A DNA stretch of 64,000 nt from Nitrospira sp. GTDB taxonomy: Bacteria; Nitrospirota; Nitrospiria; Nitrospirales; Nitrospiraceae. Position numbers and translations under genes: made by a program. The notes beneath the pieces were generated by a model that had not been told where the DNA came from, searched no databases, and saw only the letters and a list, made by a program, of their open reading frames with translations. Positions 46,260 to 64,000 of this stretch are shown piece after piece; position 1 is the first letter of the stretch, and each line of letters starts with the position of its first letter. The stretch covers positions 558,001-622,000 of the forward strand of contig JARFXR010000002.1 of the NCBI GenBank assembly GCA_029194535.1. The letters run 5' to 3'.

Positions 46260-48137
46260 TCACTTCGGCTTCTCCGGAACGTCGAGAATCTGGTCGAATG
46301 CCAGCCCGCTGCTGCCTTCCCCTCGACCCGTCGTCTTGCGGACTCCCAACCACTGAAACACGCGTCCGCCGTACCACCGTGTTCTCTGAAACGACTGCGT
46401 CACGAGGATACCAGCCCGAGGGACTTCTTCCTCGTGGATGAAATAGGGAGTCCGCTTCGGCTTGGCGTCCAGCCCTTCCCGCAGGAGTTCGGTGCGCGGA
46501 CGGATGCGCGCCGGGTGGTCATCGCCCTTGAGAAAGCGCAGCATCGCGGCGCGTTGCAAGCGAATCTCCCGGTTGCTGCCTGGGTCATGCACGGGAATGA
46601 ATGGAATCCAATTCTCCGGTACGGAATTCATCACCGAGTAGCGAATTTTGGCCCGATACTCGGGTTCGGGAGTCGGGCTGACTGCCGCCAGCCGTTCGAA
46701 CACCTTTCGAGTCTCAGACGCCGCTTCGAAACCGGGCTTGGGGCGTCCGTGGGGAAGCGTGATCGTCTTCTCAATGCCCCACACCATATTCGCCATCTCG
46801 TCACGCATGACCGCCACTTCTTCACGCGCAGGGCCGTCCTGTATCTTCGGCGTACTCGAAGGCAGGAGGAGCGCGAGATCGGCTGCCGCCGCCTCGTTTC
46901 CTTTTACGTTGAGTGAAAACATTCGCCAGGTCGACCACTGGTCATCGAGGCCCCGTCCCGCGGGGTCGATCCAAAACCGTTCACCGAACACGTTTGCGAC
47001 GGCTAGTCCTTTGACGCGCGACAGACTTCCCGCAGGCAATCGGAAGGGGGTCAAAAACCAGTCGTTGGCGTACGCCAAGCCGAACTCCATGACCAACAAT
47101 TTCGCCAGGTCGGTCGTACCGGGTTTGATGGCGCCAAAATTGGTTTTTCCATCTTCAAACGCCCACCAGCGAGTCAGCGGCATGCCGCTAAAAATGATGT
47201 TGGTCGGCCAGAAGGTCCGGGTGAACGTCGCCGGCGCCGGCGGAGATCCCGCCGGTTCACCCAGAGCGCGTTGAGACGTATCGAAGTCGAAGTTGTACCA
47301 GTCCAAGTGGCCGTGATAGTACTCGTCCGCCGCCAGCACGTCTTCTCCGTCGGACTTCGGTGCGGCGCAGGCGAACTGATATTCGAGATAGTCGGAGCGC
47401 CAAGCCTTCTGTTGCGGATCTTCCGGCTGATAGAACTGCCGCTCGTACCAGGCTCTAAAGGCAATCATCGCCGTGTTCAACGGCGCGGCGGGTCCCGCGG
47501 TGATCGACGTCCAGTCCGGGGCGAAGTTGCTCTCCTTAAGAAAGCTATGGAATTCGTAGCCGTCCAACGCCCGGCCGCCGGACACTGCGGCGAACTGTTG
47601 CCACGCTTCGCGATGCGCGCACACCGCCGCATCCGCGGCCGCGTCGGGATCGGGCCGCGCGATAGGGAAGCGGGTCAGGAAGTCGGCTCGCACACCCGCG
47701 CCGACACCGGCCGCGGCGAGTAGCTTCAACCAGTAACGCCCCATCACCAGCCGCAGATCCAGCGCGACCTTCTGATCTCCCTGACGAAACGCGATCGGCA
47801 GCTGCTCGACCTGCGTCTCCAGCGGGATGGTCTCGTCGAACGGCCTCGCTGCGTGGCCGTCAGGCTTGTATGTGTGGGGGCGCGCCGATTCCATATGAAT
47901 TTTCGCCAGTGCGGGAGATCCGGCGTCTTCTCCCTTGAATTCGCCCATCTGCCATTGCCGGCTGAGCATCCATAGGGCGTCATGAATCTCGGCGCGCAAC
48001 GCGCGATCGAAGCTCGTGCGATTGCGCGGGCGACCTTCGGTGCGTTCCCAGGTGACGATCGACGGGTTGGCGCGAGCCAGCACCGCGGCCTTCATATCGG
48101 TGACGAGAGTCGAGGAGAGCGCGTTGATCAATGGCAT
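46260..48137 (-). CDS. Large hypothetical protein (625 aa), last gene of the giant-protein operon
   Basis: A 625-residue protein without signal peptide or membrane helix. The N-terminal third has HDALWMLSRQWQMGEFKGEDAG-like sequence, and the middle is rich in aromatic residues (WYERQFYQPEDPQQKAWRSD, DEYYHGHLDWYNFDFDTS, FWPTNIIFSGMPLTRWWAFE). I recognise no domain, but the clean block structure implies a folded, conserved protein. It starts four bases after the 1826-residue gene and is surely co-translated with it. Confidence 0.8.
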   Translation of the reverse strand: MPLINALSSTLVTDMKAAVLARANPSIVTWERTEGRPRNRTSFDRALRAEIHDALWMLSRQWQMGEFKGEDAGSPALAKIHMESARPHTYKPDGHAARPFDETIPLETQVEQLPIAFRQGDQKVALDLRLVMGRYWLKLLAAAGVGAGVRADFLTRFPIARPDPDAAADAAVCAHREAWQQFAAVSGGRALDGYEFHSFLKESNFAPDWTSITAGPAAPLNTAMIAFRAWYERQFYQPEDPQQKAWRSDYLEYQFACAAPKSDGEDVLAADEYYHGHLDWYNFDFDTSQRALGEPAGSPPAPATFTRTFWPTNIIFSGMPLTRWWAFEDGKTNFGAIKPGTTDLAKLLVMEFGLAYANDWFLTPFRLPAGSLSRVKGLAVANVFGERFWIDPAGRGLDDQWSTWRMFSLNVKGNEAAAADLALLLPSSTPKIQDGPAREEVAVMRDEMANMVWGIEKTITLPHGRPKPGFEAASETRKVFERLAAVSPTPEPEYRAKIRYSVMNSVPENWIPFIPVHDPGSNREIRLQRAAMLRFLKGDDHPARIRPRTELLREGLDAKPKRTPYFIHEEEVPRAGILVTQSFQRTRWYGGRVFQWLGVRKTTGRGEGSSGLAFDQILDVPEKPK

Positions 48138-48141
48138 AACG

Positions 48142-51100
48142 TCACAACCTATTCAAAGTGACTGCCGTGAAATTCCGAGCCGCACGAGCCAGGATATCGG
48201 CGGAAATCGTCATCGGCGACCACGACGTCTCAGTCAGGACAGCCGGAAGCAGCGCGGCGAACTGCCGGCCCAGTGCGTCAGGCTCCACAGCCCGTGTGCG
48301 CGCGGCATCGAGGGCCTCGTTGAGTGAAGCCACGATGTCGTTCCACCGCCATGCTCCGGTAAAGGCGGCCGGCGTAGCCAACAACCAGACCTGCGGAGGC
48401 TCCGCGTTGGGTCGGTCAAAGTGGAAGGCCAGGCCTGTGACCTCCTCCTGTTGCGGGATCACTTCCGTCCATTCGTCCACCAGCAGGCCGCATTGAAAGA
48501 TGTCGGGCTGGAACACCTCGCTGTAGTGGGCGGTGTACAGCAAGCGCTCGGTCTCGAGCGTATTGGCCCCGTTTCCAGGATCGAATTCGAGAGCCAGCCA
48601 ATTCTCGCCCGCATGAAAAGGCAACTGCAGCGGTCTCAATATCGGTTCGGTCAGCCCGAACGCCCCGTTGAGTACCACAGTGTTTTCCAAGTGAAACATC
48701 TTCTCCCGTACCCGCGCCACGCCGTGCAGCCATTCGTCCACCGGCAGCGGCAGCGGACTTTCCGGACGAGTGGAGACGTATGTGAGAAGACTGTCCGAAG
48801 CATCCAACGCGTTCTTCCATTCCGATCCCGCGGCCGTCGTGGTCTTGAAGCTCGGAATCATGCGGAAGTCGTCGCCGAGAAGCATTCGTCCAGCCTCGCC
48901 GAGCAGCGTGACTTGCTCGACGGGGTCGGCCGATGCATGGTGCGCGGCAACGGCTGCAGACGCCGCATCCAAGCGGCGGGTGGCTTCGGCGACGATCGCT
49001 TGCGTGCCTGTGACGAACCGGTCCAGCATGAGTCGCATGGCCGTGGTTTGATCCGTCAGGCTGAACGCCGTCGGATCGAAATCTGTCAACGGCAATTGCG
49101 CCACGATCTGCTGATGCAACCCGAACAGCGTGCCGGGCTGCGCCGCTGTGATGTTTTGCAGCACGGTGAGCTTCGCCTCGAACAGATTTTGCCGGTTCAC
49201 CGCCTCGGCCAACATGGCGGCCGGTGCAAGATCGAGCGGCAGGGCTGCGGTCGAAACCAGAACCGCGGCCTCCCGCAACCGCGGGGCATCCGCGCCGGTG
49301 GGAACCACCAATGCGGTCGTGATCACGCGGGAAGCCGCCAGGCGATCGGACCAGTCTTTCGTCAACGCGTTCAGCTTCTTCACCACCGCGGCATAAATGT
49401 CACCCCGGTCCTGCCACGTCATGGCAAAACCGGCGTGCGGCACGCCGAACAGATTGCACCTCGCCGATAGCCCGCCGAATTGCACAAGGTGGGCGTCGAG
49501 ATTCGTAAGAATGTTGCCGGTTGCATCGGGCTCAACCCCCGCGAGGAATGTGTTCGCTTGGGTTCGCAGCGCGGTCAGCGCCAGTGCCACGGCGTCAATC
49601 CGGCTCGAATCCAGACGGATCGTCCCGAGGTTGGAAACGGTGGCTTCCCCCGGCAACTGCACGTCCGTCGCCTGGAGCGGACGCGAACGCAGCAAGAGCG
49701 CCCGCAAGCTCGTCAACAAGGGCATCGCCTCGAACAAGGTGATCTTCCCGGCCTCCGGCTCGGTGAAAGCGAGCGTGATGCGCGTGTGCGGGCGTATATC
49801 GGGTCGCGCGGTCACAAACCTCAGGACCAGATCCTCGAGCGCCGTGGCCGTCTGAGTCGCGGCCTCGTTCACCATGAACAACAGGTCAAGAGGATCAAGG
49901 CCCAGATCGGCCTGTCTGACGAAGACCCGAACGGGGTTCCCGGCCGGGTCGGAGTACCGCACGACGAGGCCCAAGTCGTCGGGCGCAGGCAGGTGATCCG
50001 CCAGCCAATCGTTCACGCTCGGTTCACCTTGCTTGCGCGGGTTGTCACCAGGGGCCGCGGTCTTGTCCGAACGCAGGTGAATGGCGACGCGATGGGTCAA
50101 GGTGTATCCGCTGCGCGGCGTGCGGACCACTTCCGGATCCGGCGCCGGGTCCGCGCCCGCGTATGCGTTCATGGTCGCCGCGGCTCGGTCGGCGTTGCCC
50201 ATCACCACCTGGTGCACGCTCTCCGCCATGGCCACGTCCGCCACTCCATCCGCCGAGTCGAACAACTCGCGCGCGAACGACGTCACGCGAGTCCGTTCGG
50301 CCGGCGTCGATCCGGGAAGAATCGCGGCAAGCGGATCCGGGTTGCTTTGATTGCTGTCAAGGAAGTTCATCAGCGCGAATCCATCCACCACGTTGTTCGC
50401 TTCAATGAATTCGACCGGGGTGTTCGGCGTTTGCGTCGACTTCAGCTTCTGGGCGTTGAGCGAGAACTGATTCCGCAGGTCGAGGATGAACTTGTCTAAT
50501 CCTGTGCCGTCATCGTGCAAACGCCGCTCCAGGTGATAACCGAGCAACGCGCCAAGCTTTTGCCCGTTACGAATGCCGTCGATCAATCCTAGGGACCTGC
50601 GCACGCGTTCCGAAGACAGGTTGATCGACAGCAGGTCCGGATGTGAGGGAGTGGCGGTGGCTCGATACCCGTTGCGAAGTACGGCGGCGGTGACGGCGTG
50701 GTTCAGCGAAGGCGCATGAACGAACCCGCCGTTGTTGCTGTCGCGCATCAATTGAGGTTGCCCCGGCGCGTTGTTGAACACCCGGTCGAGCGCGCCTTCC
50801 AGCCGGACCGGCGTCAGCCTTCTGGGTTGAGGCTTCACGCCCTCGAGCCAACCGTACGCTCCGATGTGAATGCCGCGGCGCGCGCCTGCGTTCTCGGCGC
50901 GGTCGGCAAACCGCATGAACGACAATTGCAAATGGTTCAGCCCCGTCTTCCAGGCGTCCAGCCGGTAATGGCACACATCGAAATGTTCGCGCAGCAACCG
51001 TTCCAACGGGGCGGTGGGCGTCTTGACCAGCCGCTCGAGCGCGGCCAGGAGGTCGCGCAGTTCGTCCGCCTCGCTGAGCGTTTCGATTGAGTCGACGATG

Positions 51101-53622
51101 TACTGGGCGAGCGGGTAGTTCGCGCGGCCTGTGACCTGAGGGAAATCCAAATACAGATGAGCCCAGGGGCTTTCGGACGTGACCGCTTTGTCATGGGCCG
51201 GCGCGGCGACGTGGATGAACGTCTGCGGCGCCTTCCAACCGGCGAATAGGTCGGCGCTGACGAACGGCCGCTTGACGTGTCGCGATGCACGTTCGAACGC
51301 CAGCAGCAACGCTTGGCGGAGAAACAGATACAGGAGGGCGTTCGGTTTGTTCCCGTCGGTGAACCCGACTTCACGGCGAATATCGTCCACCGAGTCGCGC
51401 CCCTTCTTCAGCAGCCATCCGATGTAATTGAGCGGAGCGGGTGCGGGCGTGTACTCACGTACCGGAGCTGTTTCCGATGCAGGACGATCATCGACCAGGA
51501 TGTCGTGCAGTTGAAACGGCCGGCCGAAGTAATTGCGCGACAGAATGTCCGGAATGTCGATGCCCTGGTGCCCGAGCTCGCGCAAGAGCAGTCCTCCCGC
51601 TGCGTCGGGCGTCTGTTTCAACGTATCCGGCGCGCCGTTCAAACCGAGGACCACGGTGTTGTAGCTCACGTTGTACGGCTCGCCGAGCACGGCGTGGACC
51701 TCTTCGCACAGGGGATGCAAGCCCAAGACGTCGAGCAGCGTCTGCTGCGGATCGGGATCGCCCGGCGCGCCGATTTGCTTGACCTTGTCGGCCAAGCCTC
51801 GCCAGATCGTATCGAGCTTCAGCAGCAGCTCATACAACCGCATCGTATACACCGAGTCGGCGTCCTTGCGTTCTGCCGACTGCTTGACCCAACCCAGAGT
51901 GCGGAACGGTGAAATCGGGAGAATCCCATACGGTTGGCGGCCGATCCGAACCGCAGGCGCCGGGCCGCGGCCGGAGACGTACTTCAAGAAAAATGATCGC
52001 GTCTGCCGTATCGCTGTATCGTCCAGCACGGGATTCAGCATGCGCTCGAAATAATAGCCCCAGGTGGCGGGCCATAACGCTGTATTGATGGCGCGCGCCT
52101 CGAGTTGATCCTTCTGCCCTGCGTTGGGGACTTGCTGCAGGACCGCCGGGTCGAGTCCCAGCCACTCGGCCAGCCACTGGCCGTCGGCTTTGCGCAGAGG
52201 ATCGGCGCTCGGAGTGAACTGCGTCGAGCTCTTCACGAACACGTCGTAGCTGTCGTCAGGATCGTCGGTGCGGTTGAAGGGCGATGTCGCTTCCTCCGTA
52301 TTGTTTGTCGGCGTTCCTTGCGGCACGATCGCGAAACCGCTCCGGCTATACAGATGATGTGTGAACAGGTCCTGCAAGTCTGCAGCGTTTCGTTCCGCAT
52401 CCGCACTCAGGCGGATGCCCACGACAAATACCCTCTCGAACCCGTCGGCGGCTTGGCTGGGACTGAGAGGCACCTTCAGGCCGAGGCCCTTGGCCTCCGC
52501 GGCTGCGAAATCCGTCATCCACCGAATGTCCTCGGCAATTTGTAGATCGCCCGCGTCCTCAACGAATTGTTGGGCTTCTGTCGGATCAGGTCCCGTCGTC
52601 AGCGGAAGCACGACAGGATTGAACGGCATCTGCAACGGCGGCTGCCCGCTGTTTTGACCGATGAAGATGAAGCGGTCCGGAAACAGATATACCTTGGGGG
52701 GCTCGGTCCAGGACAAGTTCTTCGTGTCCAGCTCGGACAGCGGCGGAAACCGCAACAGCGCGACGTCCGGATTCGTCTCCGCAGACGCGGCCCACGCTCG
52801 AATGTTGTCCGGCACGAAGTCGCGAACGATCTGTTCCGCCAGAGCCACGGAGCTTCCGGGCGCACCGGCCAGGTTCTGGAACGCGGTGTCCGACAGCGTC
52901 GCGTCGCCTCGAGCCTGCCAGACCGCCCGCCAGTAGTCGGCAATCACATTCTGCGGCAACGGTAAGGGCTGGTCGGCGGCGATTACCAGCACGATGGCTT
53001 CCGGTCGCGCCTTGGCGGGCTTATCGGCGGCATTGAGCGGAGCGAACTGCTGCAGAATCCATGCTGCCCGACCGGACCCTACGCTCCCCACCAAACCTCG
53101 CCAGGCAGCTCGCTCCTGATCCTCGATCCCGCCGGCCTTCCAGGATTCGATGTAATACCGTCTCGCCGCTCTGACCTCGGTGCCCGAGAGCGCCGTCTCG
53201 AACGTGTCGATCAAGCAGTCGTCGGGATAGATCCGGACCCAGAGTTCGGATCGCATGAACCGCGTCTCAATCCGTACCGGGAACATCAGCAGAGGGATGC
53301 CGTCGTCAAGACGCTCCACAAATTGCGCCGGATCGCTGAAGGCAAAGAAGTCGCGTGCAAATCGATCCATTGATCTGCGCGCGACCGTGTATTGCGTTTC
53401 GGCTTCCTTGAGCGCATTGGCGGCGTTCGCGCGATCCTTGCGCAATTGAACCAGCCGTTGCACGGCGTCGAGATTGTGCTCTCCGGCTCGGCGCTCGAGC
53501 TGGGCGATCTGCGCGTCCAAGCGCTGCAAGAGCCGGTTCGCGGCCGCGCGCGCTTTTCGAGCTTCGGAGTGTTTGTCACGCGCCTGATTCAGTTGTTGAC
53601 GAACTTGCTCGAACTCGCTCAT
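48142..53622 (-). CDS. Giant hypothetical protein (1826 aa)
   Basis: An N-terminal coiled coil (about 1-95: charged heptads with ANRLLQRLDAQIAQLERRAG) precedes many globular blocks: FPVRIETRFMRSELWVRIYP (about 115-135), WPATWGYYFERMLNP, VRIGRQPYGILPISPFRTLG (about 560), RRGIHIGAYGWLEGVKPQPR, GGFVHAPSLNHAVTAAVLRN and LGALLGYHLERRLHD (about 1000-1050). No signal peptide or membrane helix. I recall uncharacterised homologues in other phyla carrying the last two blocks, but no function. It is six bases after the 1110-residue gene and four before the 625-residue gene. The size, coiled coil and lack of catalytic motifs suggest a structural or scaffold part; this is an inference. Confidence 0.85.
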   Translation of the reverse strand: MSEFEQVRQQLNQARDKHSEARKARAAANRLLQRLDAQIAQLERRAGEHNLDAVQRLVQLRKDRANAANALKEAETQYTVARRSMDRFARDFFAFSDPAQFVERLDDGIPLLMFPVRIETRFMRSELWVRIYPDDCLIDTFETALSGTEVRAARRYYIESWKAGGIEDQERAAWRGLVGSVGSGRAAWILQQFAPLNAADKPAKARPEAIVLVIAADQPLPLPQNVIADYWRAVWQARGDATLSDTAFQNLAGAPGSSVALAEQIVRDFVPDNIRAWAASAETNPDVALLRFPPLSELDTKNLSWTEPPKVYLFPDRFIFIGQNSGQPPLQMPFNPVVLPLTTGPDPTEAQQFVEDAGDLQIAEDIRWMTDFAAAEAKGLGLKVPLSPSQAADGFERVFVVGIRLSADAERNAADLQDLFTHHLYSRSGFAIVPQGTPTNNTEEATSPFNRTDDPDDSYDVFVKSSTQFTPSADPLRKADGQWLAEWLGLDPAVLQQVPNAGQKDQLEARAINTALWPATWGYYFERMLNPVLDDTAIRQTRSFFLKYVSGRGPAPAVRIGRQPYGILPISPFRTLGWVKQSAERKDADSVYTMRLYELLLKLDTIWRGLADKVKQIGAPGDPDPQQTLLDVLGLHPLCEEVHAVLGEPYNVSYNTVVLGLNGAPDTLKQTPDAAGGLLLRELGHQGIDIPDILSRNYFGRPFQLHDILVDDRPASETAPVREYTPAPAPLNYIGWLLKKGRDSVDDIRREVGFTDGNKPNALLYLFLRQALLLAFERASRHVKRPFVSADLFAGWKAPQTFIHVAAPAHDKAVTSESPWAHLYLDFPQVTGRANYPLAQYIVDSIETLSEADELRDLLAALERLVKTPTAPLERLLREHFDVCHYRLDAWKTGLNHLQLSFMRFADRAENAGARRGIHIGAYGWLEGVKPQPRRLTPVRLEGALDRVFNNAPGQPQLMRDSNNGGFVHAPSLNHAVTAAVLRNGYRATATPSHPDLLSINLSSERVRRSLGLIDGIRNGQKLGALLGYHLERRLHDDGTGLDKFILDLRNQFSLNAQKLKSTQTPNTPVEFIEANNVVDGFALMNFLDSNQSNPDPLAAILPGSTPAERTRVTSFARELFDSADGVADVAMAESVHQVVMGNADRAAATMNAYAGADPAPDPEVVRTPRSGYTLTHRVAIHLRSDKTAAPGDNPRKQGEPSVNDWLADHLPAPDDLGLVVRYSDPAGNPVRVFVRQADLGLDPLDLLFMVNEAATQTATALEDLVLRFVTARPDIRPHTRITLAFTEPEAGKITLFEAMPLLTSLRALLLRSRPLQATDVQLPGEATVSNLGTIRLDSSRIDAVALALTALRTQANTFLAGVEPDATGNILTNLDAHLVQFGGLSARCNLFGVPHAGFAMTWQDRGDIYAAVVKKLNALTKDWSDRLAASRVITTALVVPTGADAPRLREAAVLVSTAALPLDLAPAAMLAEAVNRQNLFEAKLTVLQNITAAQPGTLFGLHQQIVAQLPLTDFDPTAFSLTDQTTAMRLMLDRFVTGTQAIVAEATRRLDAASAAVAAHHASADPVEQVTLLGEAGRMLLGDDFRMIPSFKTTTAAGSEWKNALDASDSLLTYVSTRPESPLPLPVDEWLHGVARVREKMFHLENTVVLNGAFGLTEPILRPLQLPFHAGENWLALEFDPGNGANTLETERLLYTAHYSEVFQPDIFQCGLLVDEWTEVIPQQEEVTGLAFHFDRPNAEPPQVWLLATPAAFTGAWRWNDIVASLNEALDAARTRAVEPDALGRQFAALLPAVLTETSWSPMTISADILARAARNFTAVTLNRL

Positions 53623-53628
53623 CGTCCT

Positions 53629-56600: not shown

Positions 56601-56961
56601 GCGCGATCCATGGTGTGAGTCTGTGGAGACCGGTATCGGCCGGCGCGGGCGTGTACCGCCAGGGAAAGTCTTCGTCGTAAAACTCGATGAAGGGCAGGTA
56701 GTTCGGTTCGAAATTCGTGATCCAGTTTCGCGGCTCGACGCGGATGATCGCCTTGGGATCGATGCCCACGATATCGCCGGGACCGTAGAGGCTCACGTCG
56801 CGCTCGACGGGCGTGTGTTCGTCGTCGCCGATTCCCGTACCGGCGATGTCGAGTTGCACCTTGATCTTGGCTCGCACGGCCGTCGCGCCGCCTTGAATCT
56901 GATTGGCGATTCCCTGCCGAAGCCATGGCAGAAACGTATACGTGGCAACGGGTGAAGGCAT
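53629..56961 (-). CDS. Giant hypothetical protein with a central membrane segment (1110 aa)
   Basis: The N-terminus reads YTFLPWLRQGIANQIQGG, then a beta-rich region (IIRVEPRNWITNFEPNYLPF, LTPWIALLVLEEATEFEDG). At about 612-652 lie one or two hydrophobic helices (LPWIPLGIGLLILLLLVIVF and AAAVAVGGLAVGAGYYGL). The C-terminal part has the motif NHEFARELLWREFPTDQRG (about 833-851) followed by YFRQFWD, which I recall as conserved in uncharacterised proteins of other phyla. No signal peptide, so a large domain lies on each side of the hydrophobic segment. The gene begins five bases after the DUF6603-like gene. Confidence 0.85.
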   Translation of the reverse strand: MPSPVATYTFLPWLRQGIANQIQGGATAVRAKIKVQLDIAGTGIGDDEHTPVERDVSLYGPGDIVGIDPKAIIRVEPRNWITNFEPNYLPFIEFYDEDFPWRYTPAPADTGLHRLTPWIALLVLEEATEFEDGKNIQNRPLPFITIKGDLTKLLPRHDELWAWAHVHVNQALHAGAEVVAPDTGAALSQFESILRTNTDMAYSRLMSPRDLAENKTYHAFVVPAFETGRRAGLNLDIPPDLDAAAPAWGGAARPEAGSFPYYFRWQFRTGAMGDFEFLVRLLKPRPMDVRVGLRDMDVQNPGASLPNLGMLNDILRLGGALRVPYSTLKPEDKAEFDKYDRWATPPANPYPQPFQGRLAALLNLADDYAATSASAANAGAGLPPIPADDSDDPVVTPPVYGRWHAAVSRVLKERGGSDVAHNRNWLHELNLDPRYRVASGFGTRVVQDNQETYMDKAWEQLGDVLEANRRLRRGQFALAVGKQWHAAYVKSLAEAHPEKLILFTGAVQRRIVGGGVTLGYRVSASPLTRTAISAPFRKSVRSGSRAMKLAGLGALAGPAAQGLLQRWNNGDIAPAAPKSLPPSLPTIDQVARQVEPRGAPAWLLPLLRRYAWLPWIPLGIGLLILLLLVIVFPPAAAVAVGGLAVGAGYYGLQIMRSWRHQTQVADMLGESGRAPEAVDELPKSPDFHLSQPGSGFRPGTGDVDSPEATNFKTALRGLFTFQQTVAAAPRPPEPVRLDVTAFVNATVLGTEPARTLPPRVWSQIAVPGRIAGNLVFDFDDIMEYPKIDLPMYEPLRDISPELFLPNIHLIEQNTISLLETNQKFIESYMVGVNHEFARELLWREFPTDQRGSYFRQFWDVRAYLDPHDPKAQQRREQLFDIEEIHKWPKDSELGRNDPKDATAPPREEVVLVIRGELLKRYPNAVIYAHRADWRRVGDRPSGAIDRGRPRVLVEIPASEEENPPRDKVKTPLYSAQVYPDIYFFGFDLTIDDAKGETPTAPDDPGWFFVIKERPGEPRFGLDEGNNNVFRTWNDLGWGDVQEQDSTFLRAAQNDLHITPPGADDPQGILQQAHEDDDIRWTNVSNAADIAYVLYQVPVLVAVHGSEMLPR

Positions 56962-56966
56962 GGCGG

Positions 56967-59900
56967 TCAGTGGCTCCTGTCCGGCATCACGGCTTCATGC
57001 GCAGGGATCACATGCAAGGCGCCCGCAAACTCAGGGCTCACGAGCGTGTGCGCACGCATGTAGTCGTACGCCTCGGCTTCGCTGGCGAACACGGCCTTCG
57101 TCGGATTGACCGGTTTGTTGTCGACATTCGTGGCCACGACGTAGGCTTCCTGCCGCACCGTCACTTTGTCATCGAAGGGCACAAACAGTTTCTTCGTCGC
57201 CTGAGACAATTCCGACTTTGCCGCCGAGTTGCCGCGAAGGAAATGCGTGAAGAGCGTGCCGCTGAATGCGACGAAGCGCATGAGCGTCTTCTTGTATTTG
57301 CTGTCGAAGATGATCATTTCGTAGCGCACGGTGCGCTTGACCGCCCGCGACGACACCGCTTGCCGGCCGACGGCGGACAGCACGACCCCGCCGTCCTGAA
57401 GTTCATACCCCTTGCGGCTCAACTTCTCATCATTGCTCAGATCGAGAAACTGCCCCATCGCGAACTGTTCTTTGCGGTCGCCGTTTTTACCCAAGCCCGT
57501 GGTCGTGACCTTGACGGTGAAGCGTGTGGCGTCGGCCACCTTCTGGCTCCCGACTTTGGCGATGTCGAGATCGAGCGGCACGCGCCGCTGGCTCACGACC
57601 AGAGCGCCCACCGGGTGCAGGACCAGACCCTCCGTGTCGGCCGGTCGGCGCAACGACACCAGCAGACTATTGCCCGGCGGCAATTCCGCGCGCCAGTTCT
57701 CGGCCTTATTGAATTCGTCGGCCAGGAGGGGCATCACCGGAATCGGCGGCAGCGACGTATCCTCGCGGTCGCCCCAGGTAATATCGAAGTCCGCGGAGAT
57801 ATCGAAGAAGAGCAGGGACAGTGTGCCCTCGCCTTTGGCTCGCCACGGCGTCGGACCTTCAAGCGAAAAGTCGAGGCGGATCGAGAAGAGGCCGAGCCCG
57901 AATACCTTGAGCTCCACGGAGCCGGAGATGTCGATGACGAAGTAGAACGGCGAGAACTGAAACAGCGCGTCGAACGCGACGTGCCCGAAGATTCCGAGTT
58001 CGTCGAATCCCAGCCGCAGTTCCGCGCGCGCGCCGAACTGCACGGTGTTGGACGTGACCGCAAAATAGCATTCGACCCGGATCCGCGATACGGGCGTGTT
58101 CAGGATGTCGATGGCGAGCCGCTTGGGTACGGGGAACGGCAAGGGGGGCGGGTTGAATCGTGGATGGAAACCGCCGACCGACAGCACGAAATTGGCATCG
58201 TCGCCCCAGGCGACGAGCAAGCCCATACCCCCTTCGATGCTGATGAACAGCACGCGCGACTCGAACAGCTCCGCGAAAAACCAAAGCCGGCTCTTGTCCG
58301 GCTCGATCGCGCCGATGAAATTCACCTGAATCAGGATCAGCGCCGCCTCCTCGGCCGGCAGTGCCACTTTGAGGACCCCCAAGATCGCGATCTTCCCCGG
58401 CGGGATCTCGACGATCAGGCCCAGCGAGATGCTGGCCAGCGTCGGCGTGCCCCAGCCGATCTTGGCCATCAGACCCACCAGGAACCGGCCTTCCATCGGC
58501 GGGAAATACACTCGCAGATCGCTGATGATGCGCGGCGCGTTCGCCACCACATCCTTGGGGAACATGACGCTGTTGATTCCACCGGTCCGCACGCCCGTCG
58601 CGATCACGGTGAGTTGCATCGTCCGGTTCAACCCCAGTAGTCCACCGAGGCCGCTCAGCGTAAAGCCGAAGCCCAATTGGATGCCGGTAAACTCGGCGGA
58701 AATAATGAGGAGCAGCGAGAAGCCCTTGCTCCCATCCGGCATGCGGGTCGTCACCAGACCGATCGCCTTGACGGTCACGATGTCCATGACCGCCAGCTCG
58801 AGCGCCCCGGCGTATTCTTCCTTCTCAAAGTCGAAGTAGAGATAGCCGCCGCCCTTCACCACGCCCGTGTCCACCGCCAGGCCCAGGCCGCGGGGCGGTT
58901 TGAACGCGAATCCGACATCGAGCGGACCGAGATTGCCTTTGTGGTCGTCGTCGAAGGCGAACATCGCCTGGACGCCCATGTTTTCAACCACCGCCGTCAA
59001 GGGACCCAGGTTCGCCTTCAGATCCGCGCCGAGGCTGATGGGGAGCCCTTGCGGCGTCAACCCGATTCCGACGGTCAACGACTCGATTTCGACGACCGCC
59101 AGATTCACATGCAGCGGAATTTGGATTTCGAGTCCGCCGCTGCCTTCGAAGTAAAACCCTTTGCGCGACACCCCCATGGCGATATCGAATTGGGTGGAGA
59201 ATTTCGCCGCCGAAAGGATCGTGCCGATGAATCCGTCCGCTTCGGATAGATCGATGACCAGTTGCCCGCCCTTGATTCTGGCATCGGCTCCGACGTCGCC
59301 ATCCGCCGTGAGAGTCGCGCTGTCGAAGGTCAGCGTCGAGCTCAGCCCCATCGAGAATTCCTGAAACTCGAGGCGGCTTTTCCCAGGGTCGCCGACAAGA
59401 ATGTACGCATTCGCGCCGGGCGTCGGCTTGGTGCGAAAGGTCGCTTGCATCGTTCCCTGTACGGGCGCCGACGGCGAAGTGATCGCAAACGATCCATCGG
59501 ATTGGAGGATGAGCGCTGCGGCTACGGCTGCCTGCGCTTCCGTGGCGAACTCGAGCGACCACTCCGGCCCTCCGGTTGTGAACGTGCTCGCACCCTTCAA
59601 CGGTTCATGGACCGCGACACGCAGTCCCGGCGGTGACACATCGGTTTTGGGTTGGATCTCCAAAAACACGAGGTCCAACGTGGGAACCGGCCCATCGGTG
59701 TACAGGGCAGGCAAACCCATTTCGAGCGAGAGGGTCTCGAGCTTGCGGAGCAAGTCGCGGCCGTCGAAGCCCGGATTTCCCCAACCGTATTTCGCCCGCA
59801 ACAGGTCGCCGGGTGACTTGAACAAGTCGCTGATCGCGCCGAGATGCAGCTCGCGTTTCGTGAACGGCGGCTTTGTGGGATCCGGTGATCCGACGTTGTT

Positions 59901-60392
59901 CCGTGTGCGGCTGAAGACTCCGATAAAGTCGAGGCTCGCGGCCGCCACCGGAAGCGCATCTTCGGTTTGTCGAATGACCAAGTACTCCACCAGCCGCTTC
60001 GGCAGCGCGTCGGCGAACGCGTTCACATCGGCCGGCGCCAAGCCTGGGTACGAGTTCGCCTTGATCGCGTTCGCCACCGTCGTGAATCCAGCGATCAAAT
60101 CGGCAATTCGCTTGATGATCTGGAAGGCCGCCTGAACGGCGGTCGCTTGATCGTCGGCCTCGACAGCCGCGCTGAGAGAGCGGGTGAGTTCCGGGAGACT
60201 GACGAGGGCTGCGGAAATCGACTGTACCGCGTTGCTGAACCCAGGATCCGAAGTCAAGCTGTTCGGGAATTGGATGCCTAATTCAGCCAGGAGATCCAGC
60301 GTGGTGCCGTCCTCGATATGTTCGCGAAGCGGCGAAAAGACGCCGGCAAGTCCGCTGACCAGGTTGTCGATTGTTCCCGGTTCACCAGGCAC
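56967..60392 (-). CDS. Large DUF6603-like beta-rich protein (1141 aa)
   Basis: After a helical N-terminal region (about 1-190), roughly 600 residues consist of repeated amphipathic beta strands such as LPISLGADLKANLGPLTAVV and FGFTLSGLGGLLGLNRTMQL; the latter is the signature I associate with DUF6603. The C-terminal 230 residues form another beta-rich region. No signal peptide is seen. The long alternating pattern could build an extended beta sheet or groove; that is speculation. GTG 60392 is chosen because AAGGGG lies six bases upstream; it overlaps the protease gene end by 11 bases. GTG 60419 in the same frame is possible. Confidence 0.82.
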   Translation of the reverse strand: MPGEPGTIDNLVSGLAGVFSPLREHIEDGTTLDLLAELGIQFPNSLTSDPGFSNAVQSISAALVSLPELTRSLSAAVEADDQATAVQAAFQIIKRIADLIAGFTTVANAIKANSYPGLAPADVNAFADALPKRLVEYLVIRQTEDALPVAAASLDFIGVFSRTRNNVGSPDPTKPPFTKRELHLGAISDLFKSPGDLLRAKYGWGNPGFDGRDLLRKLETLSLEMGLPALYTDGPVPTLDLVFLEIQPKTDVSPPGLRVAVHEPLKGASTFTTGGPEWSLEFATEAQAAVAAALILQSDGSFAITSPSAPVQGTMQATFRTKPTPGANAYILVGDPGKSRLEFQEFSMGLSSTLTFDSATLTADGDVGADARIKGGQLVIDLSEADGFIGTILSAAKFSTQFDIAMGVSRKGFYFEGSGGLEIQIPLHVNLAVVEIESLTVGIGLTPQGLPISLGADLKANLGPLTAVVENMGVQAMFAFDDDHKGNLGPLDVGFAFKPPRGLGLAVDTGVVKGGGYLYFDFEKEEYAGALELAVMDIVTVKAIGLVTTRMPDGSKGFSLLLIISAEFTGIQLGFGFTLSGLGGLLGLNRTMQLTVIATGVRTGGINSVMFPKDVVANAPRIISDLRVYFPPMEGRFLVGLMAKIGWGTPTLASISLGLIVEIPPGKIAILGVLKVALPAEEAALILIQVNFIGAIEPDKSRLWFFAELFESRVLFISIEGGMGLLVAWGDDANFVLSVGGFHPRFNPPPLPFPVPKRLAIDILNTPVSRIRVECYFAVTSNTVQFGARAELRLGFDELGIFGHVAFDALFQFSPFYFVIDISGSVELKVFGLGLFSIRLDFSLEGPTPWRAKGEGTLSLLFFDISADFDITWGDREDTSLPPIPVMPLLADEFNKAENWRAELPPGNSLLVSLRRPADTEGLVLHPVGALVVSQRRVPLDLDIAKVGSQKVADATRFTVKVTTTGLGKNGDRKEQFAMGQFLDLSNDEKLSRKGYELQDGGVVLSAVGRQAVSSRAVKRTVRYEMIIFDSKYKKTLMRFVAFSGTLFTHFLRGNSAAKSELSQATKKLFVPFDDKVTVRQEAYVVATNVDNKPVNPTKAVFASEAEAYDYMRAHTLVSPEFAGALHVIPAHEAVMPDRSH

Positions 60393-61773
60393 GTGGTACC
60401 CCTTTGAGCGGTACACCACCTACGAATCGATGGAAGTTGGCCATCGCCTCGTCGGCCGATTCGGCGCGCTCCGCACAGGCGAGCACCGTGAGATAGTGTT
60501 CGGTGACCGCATCCGCTAAAGCGGGACTGCCGTATTGCCGGAACACTGCCGCCATCGACACGATCGCATTCTCGACTCGTGTTCCGGCGATTTCGCGCGG
60601 CACCCGATGCGTCGGCTCTCGGACGCTTTTCAGGAAGTGCGCCAGGAACGCCGGTCCTTGGCATCGCTGCCACGCGACTTTCGCCGCCCGGTGATGATTC
60701 ACCAGATGACGGACTTCAGAAGAATGCAGACGGATCAGCCCGCTCCACTGCCGTCCGAACTCCGTGCCTTCCCAATCACGACGGAGGGCGAGCGCCCGCT
60801 CTATGCCCCGCGAATATTCGACGAGGGGAATTCCCCCAACCGGGACGGCTCCGGCGGTTCCGGTGACCGGAAAAACAATATTCAAGCGCGCCATGACATC
60901 CGCGATGTGGTTTCCGAAACTAATACCGTCGCTCCCCGCATGATGGAGGCCCACGATCCGGCGTGTCGCTTCCTCCACATACACCGAACCTGAGTCGCCC
61001 GGCCTGCTCATGACCGTATCCGGCGCTGTCGGCGCGACACGGATCTGCCCGACAAATGTCGCGCCATCGCTGCGCGTGAATGTCGGTTCGTTGTCTTGCG
61101 TGACGACGCCGTGGGTGAACCCGGACGTGTCCCCGTACTTGACGACCGGCATGCCCTTGGTTGCGACCCCGTGCCCGCGTATGGCCCCCACGGCGAGGAT
61201 GTCGTGGCTGAAACGCACGCCTCCGTTCAAGGTTGCAATTGAGCCGTCGACGTGATCCGTGAGGGCGGCATCGACCAATGTTCCGATGTCGCAACACTCG
61301 CAGCACCACGAGTCGCACAGACATCCGATTCCGACTCGATCGCCGATGCTGCTGGCCACATGATGATTCGTAAGCACCAACGGTGTCTGTTCGGGTGCGT
61401 GGGTATTGGCCGCCGTGGCCAGGCATATGACGCCCAACGTTCCGTTTGAAACGCCCCAGAGGCTCTGCGTGAGTTTCATGCCACCGCAGAGCACGTCATG
61501 CGGATCGATACGCGTCCGGCCGATCACGTCGGTCGGTATGCCCAGTATCGCGGCTGGAATCCGATCGGCCGAAACCAGCTCGGCGGTGGATTTCTTCCGC
61601 TCGACGTATACCTGAAACACCACGTGCTCCGTTGCCAAACCCCGGGTTTCCTTGATCCCCACGAGAACGTCGATCACGCCGGGAATGCGCCGCAACTGCG
61701 CGCGGGCTTCGGGCAGTTGGCGCTCCGCGCGGGCTATTTCCACCGCGAATTGTTCCGGAGTCTTTTCAGGCAT
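60382..61773 (-). CDS. Trypsin-like serine protease, paralogue 1, with Cys cluster and C-terminal helical module
   Basis: A 463-residue protein without signal peptide. The N-terminal region (1-85: IPGVIDVLVGIKET, FQVYVERKKS, GIPTDVIG) is a common prefix of this protease type. The triad is visible as H138 (TNHHVA), D176 (VDGSIATL) and S261 (PGDSGSVYV). Between H and D lies C151, C153, C157, C158, C160 and C161 (CLCDSWCCECCDIG), which may bind metal or form disulfides. Residues 350-440 form a helical module also present in paralogue 2 and as the free protein at 63167. ATG 61773 overlaps the previous stop by eight bases, with AAAGG six bases upstream. The substrate is probably within the operon, but this is inference. 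Confidence 0.88.
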   Translation of the reverse strand: MPEKTPEQFAVEIARAERQLPEARAQLRRIPGVIDVLVGIKETRGLATEHVVFQVYVERKKSTAELVSADRIPAAILGIPTDVIGRTRIDPHDVLCGGMKLTQSLWGVSNGTLGVICLATAANTHAPEQTPLVLTNHHVASSIGDRVGIGCLCDSWCCECCDIGTLVDAALTDHVDGSIATLNGGVRFSHDILAVGAIRGHGVATKGMPVVKYGDTSGFTHGVVTQDNEPTFTRSDGATFVGQIRVAPTAPDTVMSRPGDSGSVYVEEATRRIVGLHHAGSDGISFGNHIADVMARLNIVFPVTGTAGAVPVGGIPLVEYSRGIERALALRRDWEGTEFGRQWSGLIRLHSSEVRHLVNHHRAAKVAWQRCQGPAFLAHFLKSVREPTHRVPREIAGTRVENAIVSMAAVFRQYGSPALADAVTEHYLTVLACAERAESADEAMANFHRFVGGVPLKGVPRAW

Positions 61774-63163
61774 GGCCGGCCTTTGGTGCGGCCGGCCGCC
61801 CGCCCGCGACAAGCCGCACGTTCGCCATGACGTCCCCGGCAGTTCCGGTGCGTTCTGCGCATTCCAATACCGTCAAGTAATGTGCAGCCACGGCCTCCGC
61901 CAAGTCGGCGCTTCCATATTCCTGGAACACGGCGGCCATCGACACGATCGCATTCTCGACTCGAGTTCCGGCGATTTCGCGCGGCACCCGGTGCGTCGGC
62001 TCCCGAGCGCTTTTCAGGAAGTGCGCCAGGAAAGCCGGTCCTTGACATCGCTGCCACGCGACTTTCGCCGCCCGGTGATGATTCACCAGACGGCGGACTT
62101 CAGGAGCGTGAGCCCGGATGAGATCGGCCCAATCGCGGCCGAATGCGGTGTCTGCCAGATCGCGTTCCAGCGCCATCACAGGCTCAAGCACAGGCTCAAG
62201 GAACCGGCCTTCAGGAATCCCGACAAGCGGAATGGCTCCAGGCGTCCCCGTGACGGGGAAATCCATCTTGAATAGGTCCATGACGTCGGCAATATGGCTC
62301 CCCTTGGCGATTCCGGCGTCGGTTCCCGTGTGATTGAGCCCCACGATCCGCCGGGTCGCTTCCTCGACATAGACGGAACCGGAGTCGCCGTGATCGCTCA
62401 TCTTGTCGAATCCGGGCTCTGGCGCCACGCGAATCTGATGATCGAAATGCGCGTGGTCGTCATCTCTGTCGATCGTGTCGTCGTCATCGGTAACCCGTCC
62501 TCGCGTAAAGCCCGTCCGGTGTCCGTACTTGACGACGATCATTCCGATCGTCGCGACACCCGTGCCGCGTATTGCGCCGACGCCGAGAATGTCGTGGCTG
62601 AAGCGCACCTCCGGGTGGAGTGTGCCGACCGCGCCGTCGACTCGATTCGTCAGTCCGGCGTCGGTCAGTCGGCCGATATCACAGCACTCACAACACCACG
62701 AATCACAGATGTTCCCGTGACCGACGACGTCGCCGACACTATGAGCCACGTGATGATTCGTGAGCAGGAGCGGCGTGTTCGCCGAGACGTGGGTATTGCC
62801 CGCCGTCGCCAATCCGATTGCGCCGAGTGTCCCGTACTTCCCGCACCAGGTATCTTGCGTTATGTGCATGCCACCGCAGATGACGTCGTGCCGGACATCG
62901 CGCTCGCGGCCAATCACGTCGGTCGCAATTCCGGCAATCTCCGTCGGGATTCGATCGGTGGAAGCAATGTCCGCCGAAGGCCGCTTCCGGGCCACGTATA
63001 CCCGGAAGACGACCTGCTGAGTCGCCTTTCCTCCAGTCTCCTTGAGGCCCACTCGAACATCGAACACACCAGGAATCCGCAACAGTTTCACGCGAGCGTC
63101 CGCCAGCTTCGCCTTTGCATGCTGAATCTCGATGTCGAACTGCTCCTTCGTCTTTTCGGGCAT
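61766..63163 (-). CDS. Trypsin-like serine protease, paralogue 2, with Cys cluster and C-terminal helical module
   Basis: The 465-residue protein aligns without gaps to paralogue 1 through residue 270: H138, D176 and S261 are all kept, and so are C153, C157, C158, C160 and C161 (position 151 is Asn). Differences concentrate in the region 222-255, here very acidic (DDDDTIDRDDDHAHF), which could alter substrate choice or bind cations. Residues 358-414 are almost identical to paralogue 1 at both protein and DNA level, while the rest is far more diverged. It begins three bases after the 130-residue module gene. No export signal. Confidence 0.88.
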   Translation of the reverse strand: MPEKTKEQFDIEIQHAKAKLADARVKLLRIPGVFDVRVGLKETGGKATQQVVFRVYVARKRPSADIASTDRIPTEIAGIATDVIGRERDVRHDVICGGMHITQDTWCGKYGTLGAIGLATAGNTHVSANTPLLLTNHHVAHSVGDVVGHGNICDSWCCECCDIGRLTDAGLTNRVDGAVGTLHPEVRFSHDILGVGAIRGTGVATIGMIVVKYGHRTGFTRGRVTDDDDTIDRDDDHAHFDHQIRVAPEPGFDKMSDHGDSGSVYVEEATRRIVGLNHTGTDAGIAKGSHIADVMDLFKMDFPVTGTPGAIPLVGIPEGRFLEPVLEPVMALERDLADTAFGRDWADLIRAHAPEVRRLVNHHRAAKVAWQRCQGPAFLAHFLKSAREPTHRVPREIAGTRVENAIVSMAAVFQEYGSADLAEAVAAHYLTVLECAERTGTAGDVMANVRLVAGGRPAAPKAGHA

Positions 63164-63166
63164 GGG

Positions 63167-63559
63167 TTACGGTCCCGCACCTCGAATGCCCGCCAGGCTG
63201 CAGCGCTCGCGCGCCAGGCGAAAAATCCGCAGGGCATGCTCGGCTATCGCCGAACGCAATCCCTGTGAACCGTGTCGCTGCAGCACGTCGGCCATCTGCA
63301 ACATCAACATTTCCAGGGAGACACCCTCGACCTCCTCGGGAATGGAGATGTCCGCGCAAGCGCGTTGCTGTACCGCGGCTCGAACGAAGAGCGGGCCCTT
63401 GTAACGCTGCCAGACCACGCCCACACGGCGGTTGGTGTTGACCAGACCGATCACTTCCTCGATATGCTTCTGGAACGCGTCGGCCAGCGCTGGGCCGTCA
63501 GGGAGCCGGTACAAGGCTGCTTCGAACGGCTCGAGTTTCATGCGAGGCTGATCGCTCAT
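63167..63559 (-). CDS. Free-standing copy of the protease C-terminal helical module
   Basis: A 130-residue protein homologous to residues 350-440 of the two proteases: VNTNRRVGVVWQRYKGPLFV corresponds to VNHHRAAKVAWQRCQGPAFL, and MLMLQMADVLQRHGSQGLRS to AIVSMAAVFRQYGSPALADA. Its start ATG 63559 overlaps the stop of the upstream partial protease gene by four bases (ATGA). Thus in the first protease the module is a separate polypeptide; in the next two it is fused. This suggests that the module works with the protease domain, for example as an inhibitor, adaptor or targeting unit. GTG 63565 is an alternative start. Confidence 0.82.
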   Translation of the reverse strand: MSDQPRMKLEPFEAALYRLPDGPALADAFQKHIEEVIGLVNTNRRVGVVWQRYKGPLFVRAAVQQRACADISIPEEVEGVSLEMLMLQMADVLQRHGSQGLRSAIAEHALRIFRLARERCSLAGIRGAGP

Positions 63560-64000
63560 GGGCACCCCGTGGCCGGAATATCGAGCCCGGCATCAGCCTG
63601 TCCAGCGATGACGATTTGCAAGTCCCGCATCACAGGACCGATATGGTTCGCTACCCCCCTCGTGCGGGTGGCCGAATCGACCGCCCACAGCAGGCCGATG
63701 ACCTGCTTGGCGCTGTTCACAATGACGGAGCCGGAATCGCCGAGGTCGGCGAAGGTGGCGGGAGCAGTCGGGGCTGCCGGTTCGATCAGGATTTGCGAGC
63801 CTTCAAACAACACATCGATGACGCGTCCCGTGGTCAAACCGGTGTTGATGCCGCGTTTGGTGACGGTTTCGAAGCAGACCGCCTGAGCCGCTCCGGTCAA
63901 CGTCCCGATTTCCTCGATCTCGTTGACGCCATCCGCCGATTCGATCTCGTTGGCAATATCGTCGTCCAGTTGGACAACTGCGCAGTCGATTCTGTCGTTC
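63556..64000 (-). CDS. Third trypsin-like serine protease (5' part beyond the window)
   Basis: The frame is open to the right edge of the window. The visible 147 codons begin NDRIDCAVVQLDDDIANEIE, where the aspartate of DCAVV is the expected catalytic residue, and include LGDSGSVIVNSAKQVIGLLW with the catalytic serine. The histidine part and start codon lie outside. It resembles the other two proteases in the serine region but ends in GLDIPATGCP without the helical module, which is encoded by the overlapping next gene. The operon promoter must be further right. Confidence 0.8.
   Translation of the reverse strand, partial: NDRIDCAVVQLDDDIANEIESADGVNEIEEIGTLTGAAQAVCFETVTKRGINTGLTTGRVIDVLFEGSQILIEPAAPTAPATFADLGDSGSVIVNSAKQVIGLLWAVDSATRTRGVANHIGPVMRDLQIVIAGQADAGLDIPATGCP

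What the first reader, a model, noticed from the sequence alone, without database searches (positions are those of the whole stretch)
46260..64000. Operon of three trypsin-like proteases and four very large proteins of unknown function
At least eight genes on one strand are packed with gaps of 3-6 bases or overlaps of 4-11 bases over more than 17.7 kb. They encode proteases plus proteins of 1141, 1110, 1826 and 625 residues. None of the seven complete ones has a signal peptide. Tight coupling means that they are made in fixed proportion and probably assemble or process one another. I know of no characterised system with this composition; phage-tail or contractile-injection parts (sheath, tube, baseplate, DUF4157 protease) are absent. 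A proteolytically triggered defence, toxin or surface-assembly system are all possible; none is shown.
Basis: partly seen in the sequence, partly recalled or inferred. Interest (0 to 1): 0.88.

Follow-up and report, generated by a model that had tools for sequence, protein, structure and literature searches.

The report
Giant four-protein platform with swappable enzymes
Many unrelated bacteria and some archaea share an apparently undescribed set of four very large proteins, always in the same gene order, onto which evolution keeps plugging different enzymes (proteases, lipases, oxidases), and this looks like an unknown molecular machine that carries interchangeable enzymes.

Summary
The operon is real: eight genes, ending at 46260 and starting at 64533, just past the window. 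The four giants (A = DUF6603, B 1110, C 1826, D 625 aa) are a conserved system. A-B-C-D order holds in nearly all of about 90 loci from at least 14 bacterial phyla and from haloarchaeal plasmids; the B scan found 518 relatives in 84,980 species genomes. In the window's phylum the four occur together in 18 of 198 genomes. B, C and D have no detectable relative of known structure or function.

The proteases are not essential parts. They fill a slot upstream of A that elsewhere holds subtilases, M64 peptidases, PhoD, phospholipase D, tyrosinase, galactose-oxidase-like or amidase enzymes, without signal peptides. Residues 1-480 of A follow the enzyme type (5 changes on that tree, 18 on the trees of the rest). 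Residues 481-1150, B, C and D do not. DNA comparisons show cassette swaps with breakpoints mostly near A residue 505, one between syntenic flanks. A ~90-residue C-terminal domain shared by trypsin-like and subtilase enzymes was found only in these operons (23 of 23 hits).

Best reading: a platform that carries a cognate enzyme payload, probably to act outside the cytoplasm. The modular architecture is shown; transport and target are inferred.

The parts
46260..48137 (-). D, 625 aa, most conserved platform protein, no known relatives
   Evidence: directly follows C in nearly all loci
48142..53622 (-). C, 1826 aa, N-terminal coiled coil, platform protein
   Evidence: follows B in nearly all loci
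53629..56961 (-). B, 1110 aa platform protein with a central hydrophobic hairpin
   Evidence: no confident match in PDB or BFVD
55018..55134 (-). Hydrophobic hairpin of B (residues 610-648)
   Evidence: hydropathy (maximum 2.92); present in most relatives; helix pair in the AF2 model
56967..58979 (-). A residues 481-1150 (1150-aa numbering): constant part with most of DUF6603, long amphipathic beta strands
   Evidence: (PF20248, 2.4e-132); does not track enzyme type
58980..60419 (-). A residues 1-480: enzyme-specific part of A; start probably at 60392 (1141 aa)
   Evidence: start codons
60382..61773 (-). Trypsin-like protease 3 (from ATG 61773; longest ORF starts at 61812), with C-terminal docking domain
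60496..60756 (-). C-terminal ~90-aa domain of protease 3
61766..63163 (-). Trypsin-like protease 2 with C-terminal docking domain, triad H138 D176 S261
61880..62140 (-). C-terminal ~90-aa domain of protease 2
63167..63565 (-). Free-standing copy of the ~90-aa domain (132-aa gene)
63556..64000 (-). Trypsin-like protease 1, 325 aa, first gene of the operon, cut by the window edge (start at window-extended 64533 = contig C2:622533)

Best explanation
The operon encodes a modular enzyme-carrying complex. SHOWN: four giant proteins (A-B-C-D) form a conserved, co-inherited gene platform. Upstream of A sits an exchangeable enzyme gene. The enzyme and residues 1-480 of A travel together as a cassette, while A 481-1150, B, C and D stay constant. 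Two unrelated serine-protease folds share a C-terminal domain found only in this system. INFERRED: the first half of A holds its cognate enzyme, with the small domain as a docking tag for the proteases. The amphipathic beta part of A joins it to B, C and D. The hydrophobic hairpin of B contacts or enters a membrane. The complex carries the enzyme, made without signal peptide, to substrates outside the cytoplasm or in a target cell, perhaps after release by lysis. In this organism the payload is three trypsin-like protease units.
For: Order and co-occurrence. Exchangeable enzyme slot. A 1-480 tracks enzyme type: same-type pairs 7-16 points more identical, z 8-11, against |z| of 2 or less in A 481+, B, C and D; 5 changes on the A 1-480 tree against 18 on each of the A 481-1150 and B trees. 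DNA breakpoints: L040 and L041 are 86% identical over 13 kb from A residue ~503 on, but A 1-480 is 23% identical; L034/L036 are swapped between homologous flanks. Within subtilases, enzyme and A 1-480 similarity correlate (partial rho 0.85, Mantel p 0.0005). Tandem enzyme-A pairs before one B-C-D: G034. Docking domain only in the operon: 20 of 20 hits in 43 genomes and 3 of 3 in this one. No signal-peptide-like start in 340 core proteins or convincingly in 66 slot enzymes. Hairpin in B; amphipathic strands in A.
Against: No experiment, expression or localisation data. Transport, release and target are inferred. Linked inheritance of enzyme and A 1-480 could partly reflect a recombination hotspot at the start of the conserved DUF6603 region rather than binding; linkage could also produce the within-class correlation, which is weak for trypsins (Mantel p 0.054). 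B lacks the hairpin in several lineages. C and D were not modelled, and no complex was predicted. A's structural matches have rmsd near 10 A and low TM-scores, so they show only a long antiparallel beta meander.
Confidence: 0.5

Rival explanations
1. An intracellular defence or cell-death system: the giants sense invasion and switch on a cytoplasmic effector enzyme, as in conflict systems with interchangeable proteases, lipases and nucleases.
For: Exchangeable effectors with intact protease triads, no signal peptides, patchy distribution (18 of 198 genomes), presence on plasmids. Trypsin-like and caspase-like effectors with small adaptor domains are typical of such systems (PMC7159879).
Against: No PADLOC model matches at a meaningful E-value. 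Of 116 neighbouring genes few match defence models, and the rest look like mixed housekeeping genes. No NTPase: Walker A pattern in 3 of 340 core proteins. Tyrosinase, galactose-oxidase-like and murein amidase enzymes are unusual defence effectors.
Confidence: 0.2
2. A cell-surface or extracellular degradative complex of the producer itself: the giants form a scaffold that displays a hydrolase or oxidase for feeding or envelope work.
For: Enzymes act on extracellular polymers. Plasmid annotation lists surface-type domains (BGTF, lamin-tail, VCBS) in platform proteins of haloarchaea and Streptomyces.
Against: No signal peptides. Rapid cassette exchange between nearly identical platforms resembles conflict or targeting systems more than nutrition.
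Confidence: 0.17
3. A cytoplasmic or membrane-bound compartment or scaffold that houses an enzyme and controls its activity, with no export.
For: No signal peptides, a hydrophobic hairpin that could anchor to the inner membrane, long amphipathic beta structure in A.
Against: Payload types normally act on extracellular substrates; the scatter across phyla and habitats argues against one metabolic role.
Confidence: 0.13

Closest known systems
Tc (ABC) toxin complexes
   Same: Few very large proteins without classical signal peptides (my knowledge) and a non-conserved enzyme carried by a constant shell and translocator (PMC6868009).
   Different: No RHS, SpvB/TcB or VRP1/TcA domain in any protein. 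The enzyme is a separate upstream gene, and the variable half is the N-terminus of A, not a TcC C-terminus.
Extracellular contractile injection systems, tailocins, type VI secretion
   Same: One operon with exchangeable payload genes and a constant apparatus (my knowledge).
   Different: No phage-type sheath in the whole genome (PF04984) and no tail family match beyond weak chance hits.
NTP-dependent conflict systems with effector-associated domains (PMC7159879)
   Same: Interchangeable effectors, including trypsin-like and caspase-like peptidases, with small adaptor domains.
   Different: No NTPase motif; the ~90-aa domain matches no Pfam family and was found only here.
Polymorphic toxin systems (CDI, Rhs)
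   Same: Recombination swaps the enzymatic module on a constant carrier (my knowledge).
   Different: The swapped module is upstream and N-terminal, it spans two genes, no consistent immunity gene was seen in the loci, and the carrier proteins are unrelated by the family searches made.
Pfam DUF6603 (PF20248)
   Same: A is a clear member.
   Different: The family has no described function, and no paper in the searched library mentions it.
Large antiparallel beta proteins (FimD, LptD, OprD-type porins, ApoB)
   Same: Long run of amphipathic antiparallel strands in A.
   Different: Low TM-scores and rmsd near 10 A; no signal peptide; present in haloarchaea and actinomycetes, which lack a canonical outer membrane.

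Membership tests
DUF6603 (PF20248) | Match above Pfam's gathering score | tested here: met
   A residues 437-997, E 2.4e-132, 442.5 bits against cut-off 27
Trypsin-like serine protease | His-Asp-Ser triad with GDSG | tested here: met
   H138, D176, G259-D260-S261-G262 invariant in 15 sequences; PHROG protease 20754 at 1.5e-24
Tc (ABC) toxin complex | TcA, TcB and TcC domain families | tested here: not met
   No such Pfam family at E up to 1 in any window protein
eCIS / tailocin | Phage-type contractile sheath | tested here: not met
   PF04984 absent from the whole genome; the control search found it in 3 known genomes
Type VI secretion | TssB/TssC sheath and TssM/TssL membrane complex | not tested
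   Only PF04984 was searched genome-wide; none of the operon proteins matches T6SS Pfam families
NTP-dependent conflict systems | NTPase component (Walker A) | tested here: not met
   Pattern in 3 of 340 core proteins and in none of the window proteins
Effector-associated (EAD) adaptor domains | Match to a known adaptor family | tested here: inconclusive
   The ~90-aa domain matches no Pfam family; remote similarity was not tested beyond the PDB
Outer-membrane beta-barrel | Signal peptide for export to the outer membrane | tested here: not met
   No N-terminal hydrophobic segment in the A proteins
Outer-membrane beta-barrel | Closed transmembrane barrel fold | tested here: inconclusive
   VIA Z 12-16 but rmsd about 10 A; Foldseek TM 0.15 or less by query length
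Known anti-phage systems (PADLOC-DB) | Match to a PADLOC model | tested here: not met
   Only hits at E above 0.04
Protein delivery machine (functional claim) | Complex formation and transfer of the enzyme across a membrane | not testable with these tools
   Needs biochemistry and imaging

The most novel reading that the evidence does not exclude
A new class of protein-delivery or export machine, unrelated to contractile, Tc or secretion-system parts, in which four giant proteins carry any of many folded enzymes through a cognate 480-residue adaptor, used across bacterial phyla and in archaea.
Probability: 0.42. Interest if true: 0.95.

Novelty: categorically new. Interest (0 to 1): 0.85.

Why it matters
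Few multi-gene systems this large and this widespread remain undescribed. It has a natural adaptor code: the first 480 residues of A and the enzyme are inherited as a pair, and enzymes of many chemistries have been plugged onto the same platform. If it moves proteins it would be a new kind of transport machine in bacteria and archaea. If it is a defence or degradative complex it would still be a new architecture. The cassette boundary, the protease docking domain and the hairpin in B give direct, testable handles.

Tried and rejected
Sequence profiles of B and D against the PDB gave nothing real; A and C matched only designed or coiled helices, taken as chance. B against BFVD and PDB by fold gave no confident match; weak helical-hairpin similarity to alpha-pore toxins and Tc subunits (Z about 5) was not used as evidence. 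Profile comparison found no relationship among B, C and D. Natural enzyme-A fusions were looked for: long A ORFs in GC-rich loci show no enzyme domain in the stretches read. Missing genes in about 20 loci were mostly ORF-calling artefacts; tblastn restored them except A in L078 and D in L036 and L028. Viral contigs gave no match for B. Rfam found nothing in the window. Literature searches for DUF6603/PF20248 and for descriptions of such a cluster found no paper; subscription journals and preprints were not covered. The host's name was not determined.

Full report
OBSERVATION. Eight same-strand genes run from 46260 to 64533; the last part lies just beyond the window and was read from the same contig. 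From the operon start they are: trypsin-like protease 1 (325 aa), a 132-aa protein, protease 2 (465 aa), protease 3 (463 aa from ATG 61773), A (1141 or 1150 aa), B (1110), C (1826) and D (625). Junctions are gaps of 3-6 bases or overlaps of about 8-11. The next gene upstream on that strand, a predicted lipoprotein, is 480 bp away. Pfam recognises only DUF6603 in A; NCBIfam and PADLOC find nothing meaningful; PHROGs recognises the proteases.

A CONSERVED PLATFORM. B relatives were first found in 3 of 60 related genomes and in 13 plasmids from Streptomyces, Nocardia, Rhizobium, Paraburkholderia, Gemmatirosa and haloarchaea. A scan of 84,980 species genomes with a B alignment gave 518 confirmed relatives, a lower bound because it rests on two peptide patterns; the 80 best, from 14 phyla, were kept. 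The gene order A-B-C-D recurs almost without exception; the apparent gaps were mostly ORF-calling artefacts, leaving A undetected in L078 and D undetected in L036 and L028. In 198 genomes of the window's phylum, A is found in 19, B and C in 18, and D in the same 18 plus one marginal hit; one genome (G057) has A alone. Fourteen well-known control genomes have no DUF6603.

THE ENZYME SLOT. The gene just upstream of A is an enzyme of very different kinds: trypsin-like, subtilase, M64 peptidase, PhoD-like, phospholipase D, tyrosinase, galactose/glyoxal-oxidase-like, and N-acetylmuramoyl amidase. Two further groups share an invariant His and a GC(R/N)(I/V)G motif that may mark a cysteine peptidase (inference). 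None of 340 core proteins has an N-terminal hydrophobic segment, and none of 66 slot enzymes has a convincing one; three borderline matches are either truncated or not signal-like. G034 carries two enzyme-A pairs before one B-C-D, and G001 has a second enzyme-A pair followed by a 105-aa remnant of B.

THE CASSETTE BOUNDARY LIES INSIDE A. For pairs of loci I regressed identity in windows along A, B, C and D on the identity of the other platform proteins and compared pairs with the same and with different enzyme class. A 1-480 is 7-16 percentage points more identical when the enzyme class is the same (z 8-11 by label permutation, 26 loci). A 481-1150, B, C and D show nothing, |z| 2 or less; a 38-locus version gives z 8-18 for the first half and weak residual signals (z up to 3.8) beyond it (which stopped with an error in the last, empty window after these values had printed). 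On trees, five enzyme classes need 5 changes on A 1-480 (minimum 4) but 18 on A 481-1150 and 18 on B. DNA comparison shows the events. L040 (Nitrosomonas ureae, tyrosinase) and L041 (Methylococcales, trypsins) are 86% identical over 13 kb from A residue ~503 to the end of D, but A 1-480 is only 23% identical. In L034 and L036 (Bacteroidota) both flanks align and only the enzyme plus the first part of A differ. Similarity in six differing pairs begins at A residues 466-522 (window numbering), four of them at 503-507; same-enzyme control pairs align through this point. Within subtilase loci, enzyme similarity predicts A 1-480 similarity after controlling for B and A 481+ (rho 0.85, Mantel p 0.0005); for trypsins the effect is weak (p 0.054).

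A SYSTEM-SPECIFIC DOMAIN. Trypsin-like and subtilase enzymes share a ~90-aa C-terminal domain. In 43 whole genomes all 20 hits fall inside the operon loci, and in the window's genome all 3 do. It has no relative of known structure. Its presence on two unrelated protease folds suggests docking (inference).

STRUCTURE. AlphaFold2 with 65 aligned sequences models A (pLDDT 81.7) as an N-terminal helical bundle followed by about 40 beta strands. The strands are strongly amphipathic: face difference 0.94 against 0.35 +/- 0.05 in shuffles. Structural matches are usher, LptD, porins and ApoB, with rmsd near 10 A and low TM-scores, so only a long antiparallel meander is shown. B (pLDDT 86.2) has no confident match; its hydrophobic hairpin is present in most relatives but missing in some lineages. 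C and D were not modelled. Because A also occurs in haloarchaea and actinomycetes and lacks a signal peptide, an ordinary outer-membrane role is unlikely (inference).

INTERPRETATION. The evidence shows a constant four-protein platform and an exchangeable enzyme module whose cognate partner is the first half of A. I infer that A 1-480 holds the enzyme, A 481+ joins it to B-C-D, and the hairpin of B lets the complex meet a membrane, so that enzymes made without signal peptides reach substrates outside the cytoplasm. The alternative that linkage and a recombination hotspot at the conserved DUF6603 start explain the pattern cannot be excluded, but it also requires that the module boundary be preserved repeatedly. 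Defence, surface-scaffold and compartment readings remain open; the neighbourhoods give little support to defence.

KNOWN SYSTEMS. Tc toxins, contractile systems and NTP-dependent conflict systems each lack a defining feature here. The logic, an exchangeable enzyme on a constant carrier, is that of polymorphic toxins and Tc complexes, but the parts are unrelated by every test made. No paper in the searched open-access library mentions the family.

Noticed in passing
window 60496-60756 and 61880-62140: Proteases 2 and 3 are 64% identical overall but nearly identical in the C-terminal domain, as after recent duplication or gene conversion.
   Followed up: partly
L027 (GenBank MT835531.1): A record deposited as 'Bacteriophage sp.' from human faeces carries B-C-D and is probably a bacterial contig.
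   Followed up: partly
L025:17902-25790: In a Rhizobium lusitanum plasmid both B and C are split into two adjacent ORFs with overlapping ends.
   Followed up: no
L021 and L024: Haloarchaeal C proteins are 2300-3200 aa and are annotated with a BGTF surface domain; D is annotated with a lamin-tail domain.
   Followed up: no
L016:7563-7880: A 105-aa remnant of the B N-terminus follows a second DUF6603 gene in a relative of the same genus, apparently a decayed second platform.
   Followed up: no
L003:9222-10343 (window-extended 69221-70342): A clostripain-like cysteine peptidase gene (by reading its sequence) lies about 5 kb upstream of the operon start on the same strand; linkage untested.
   Followed up: no
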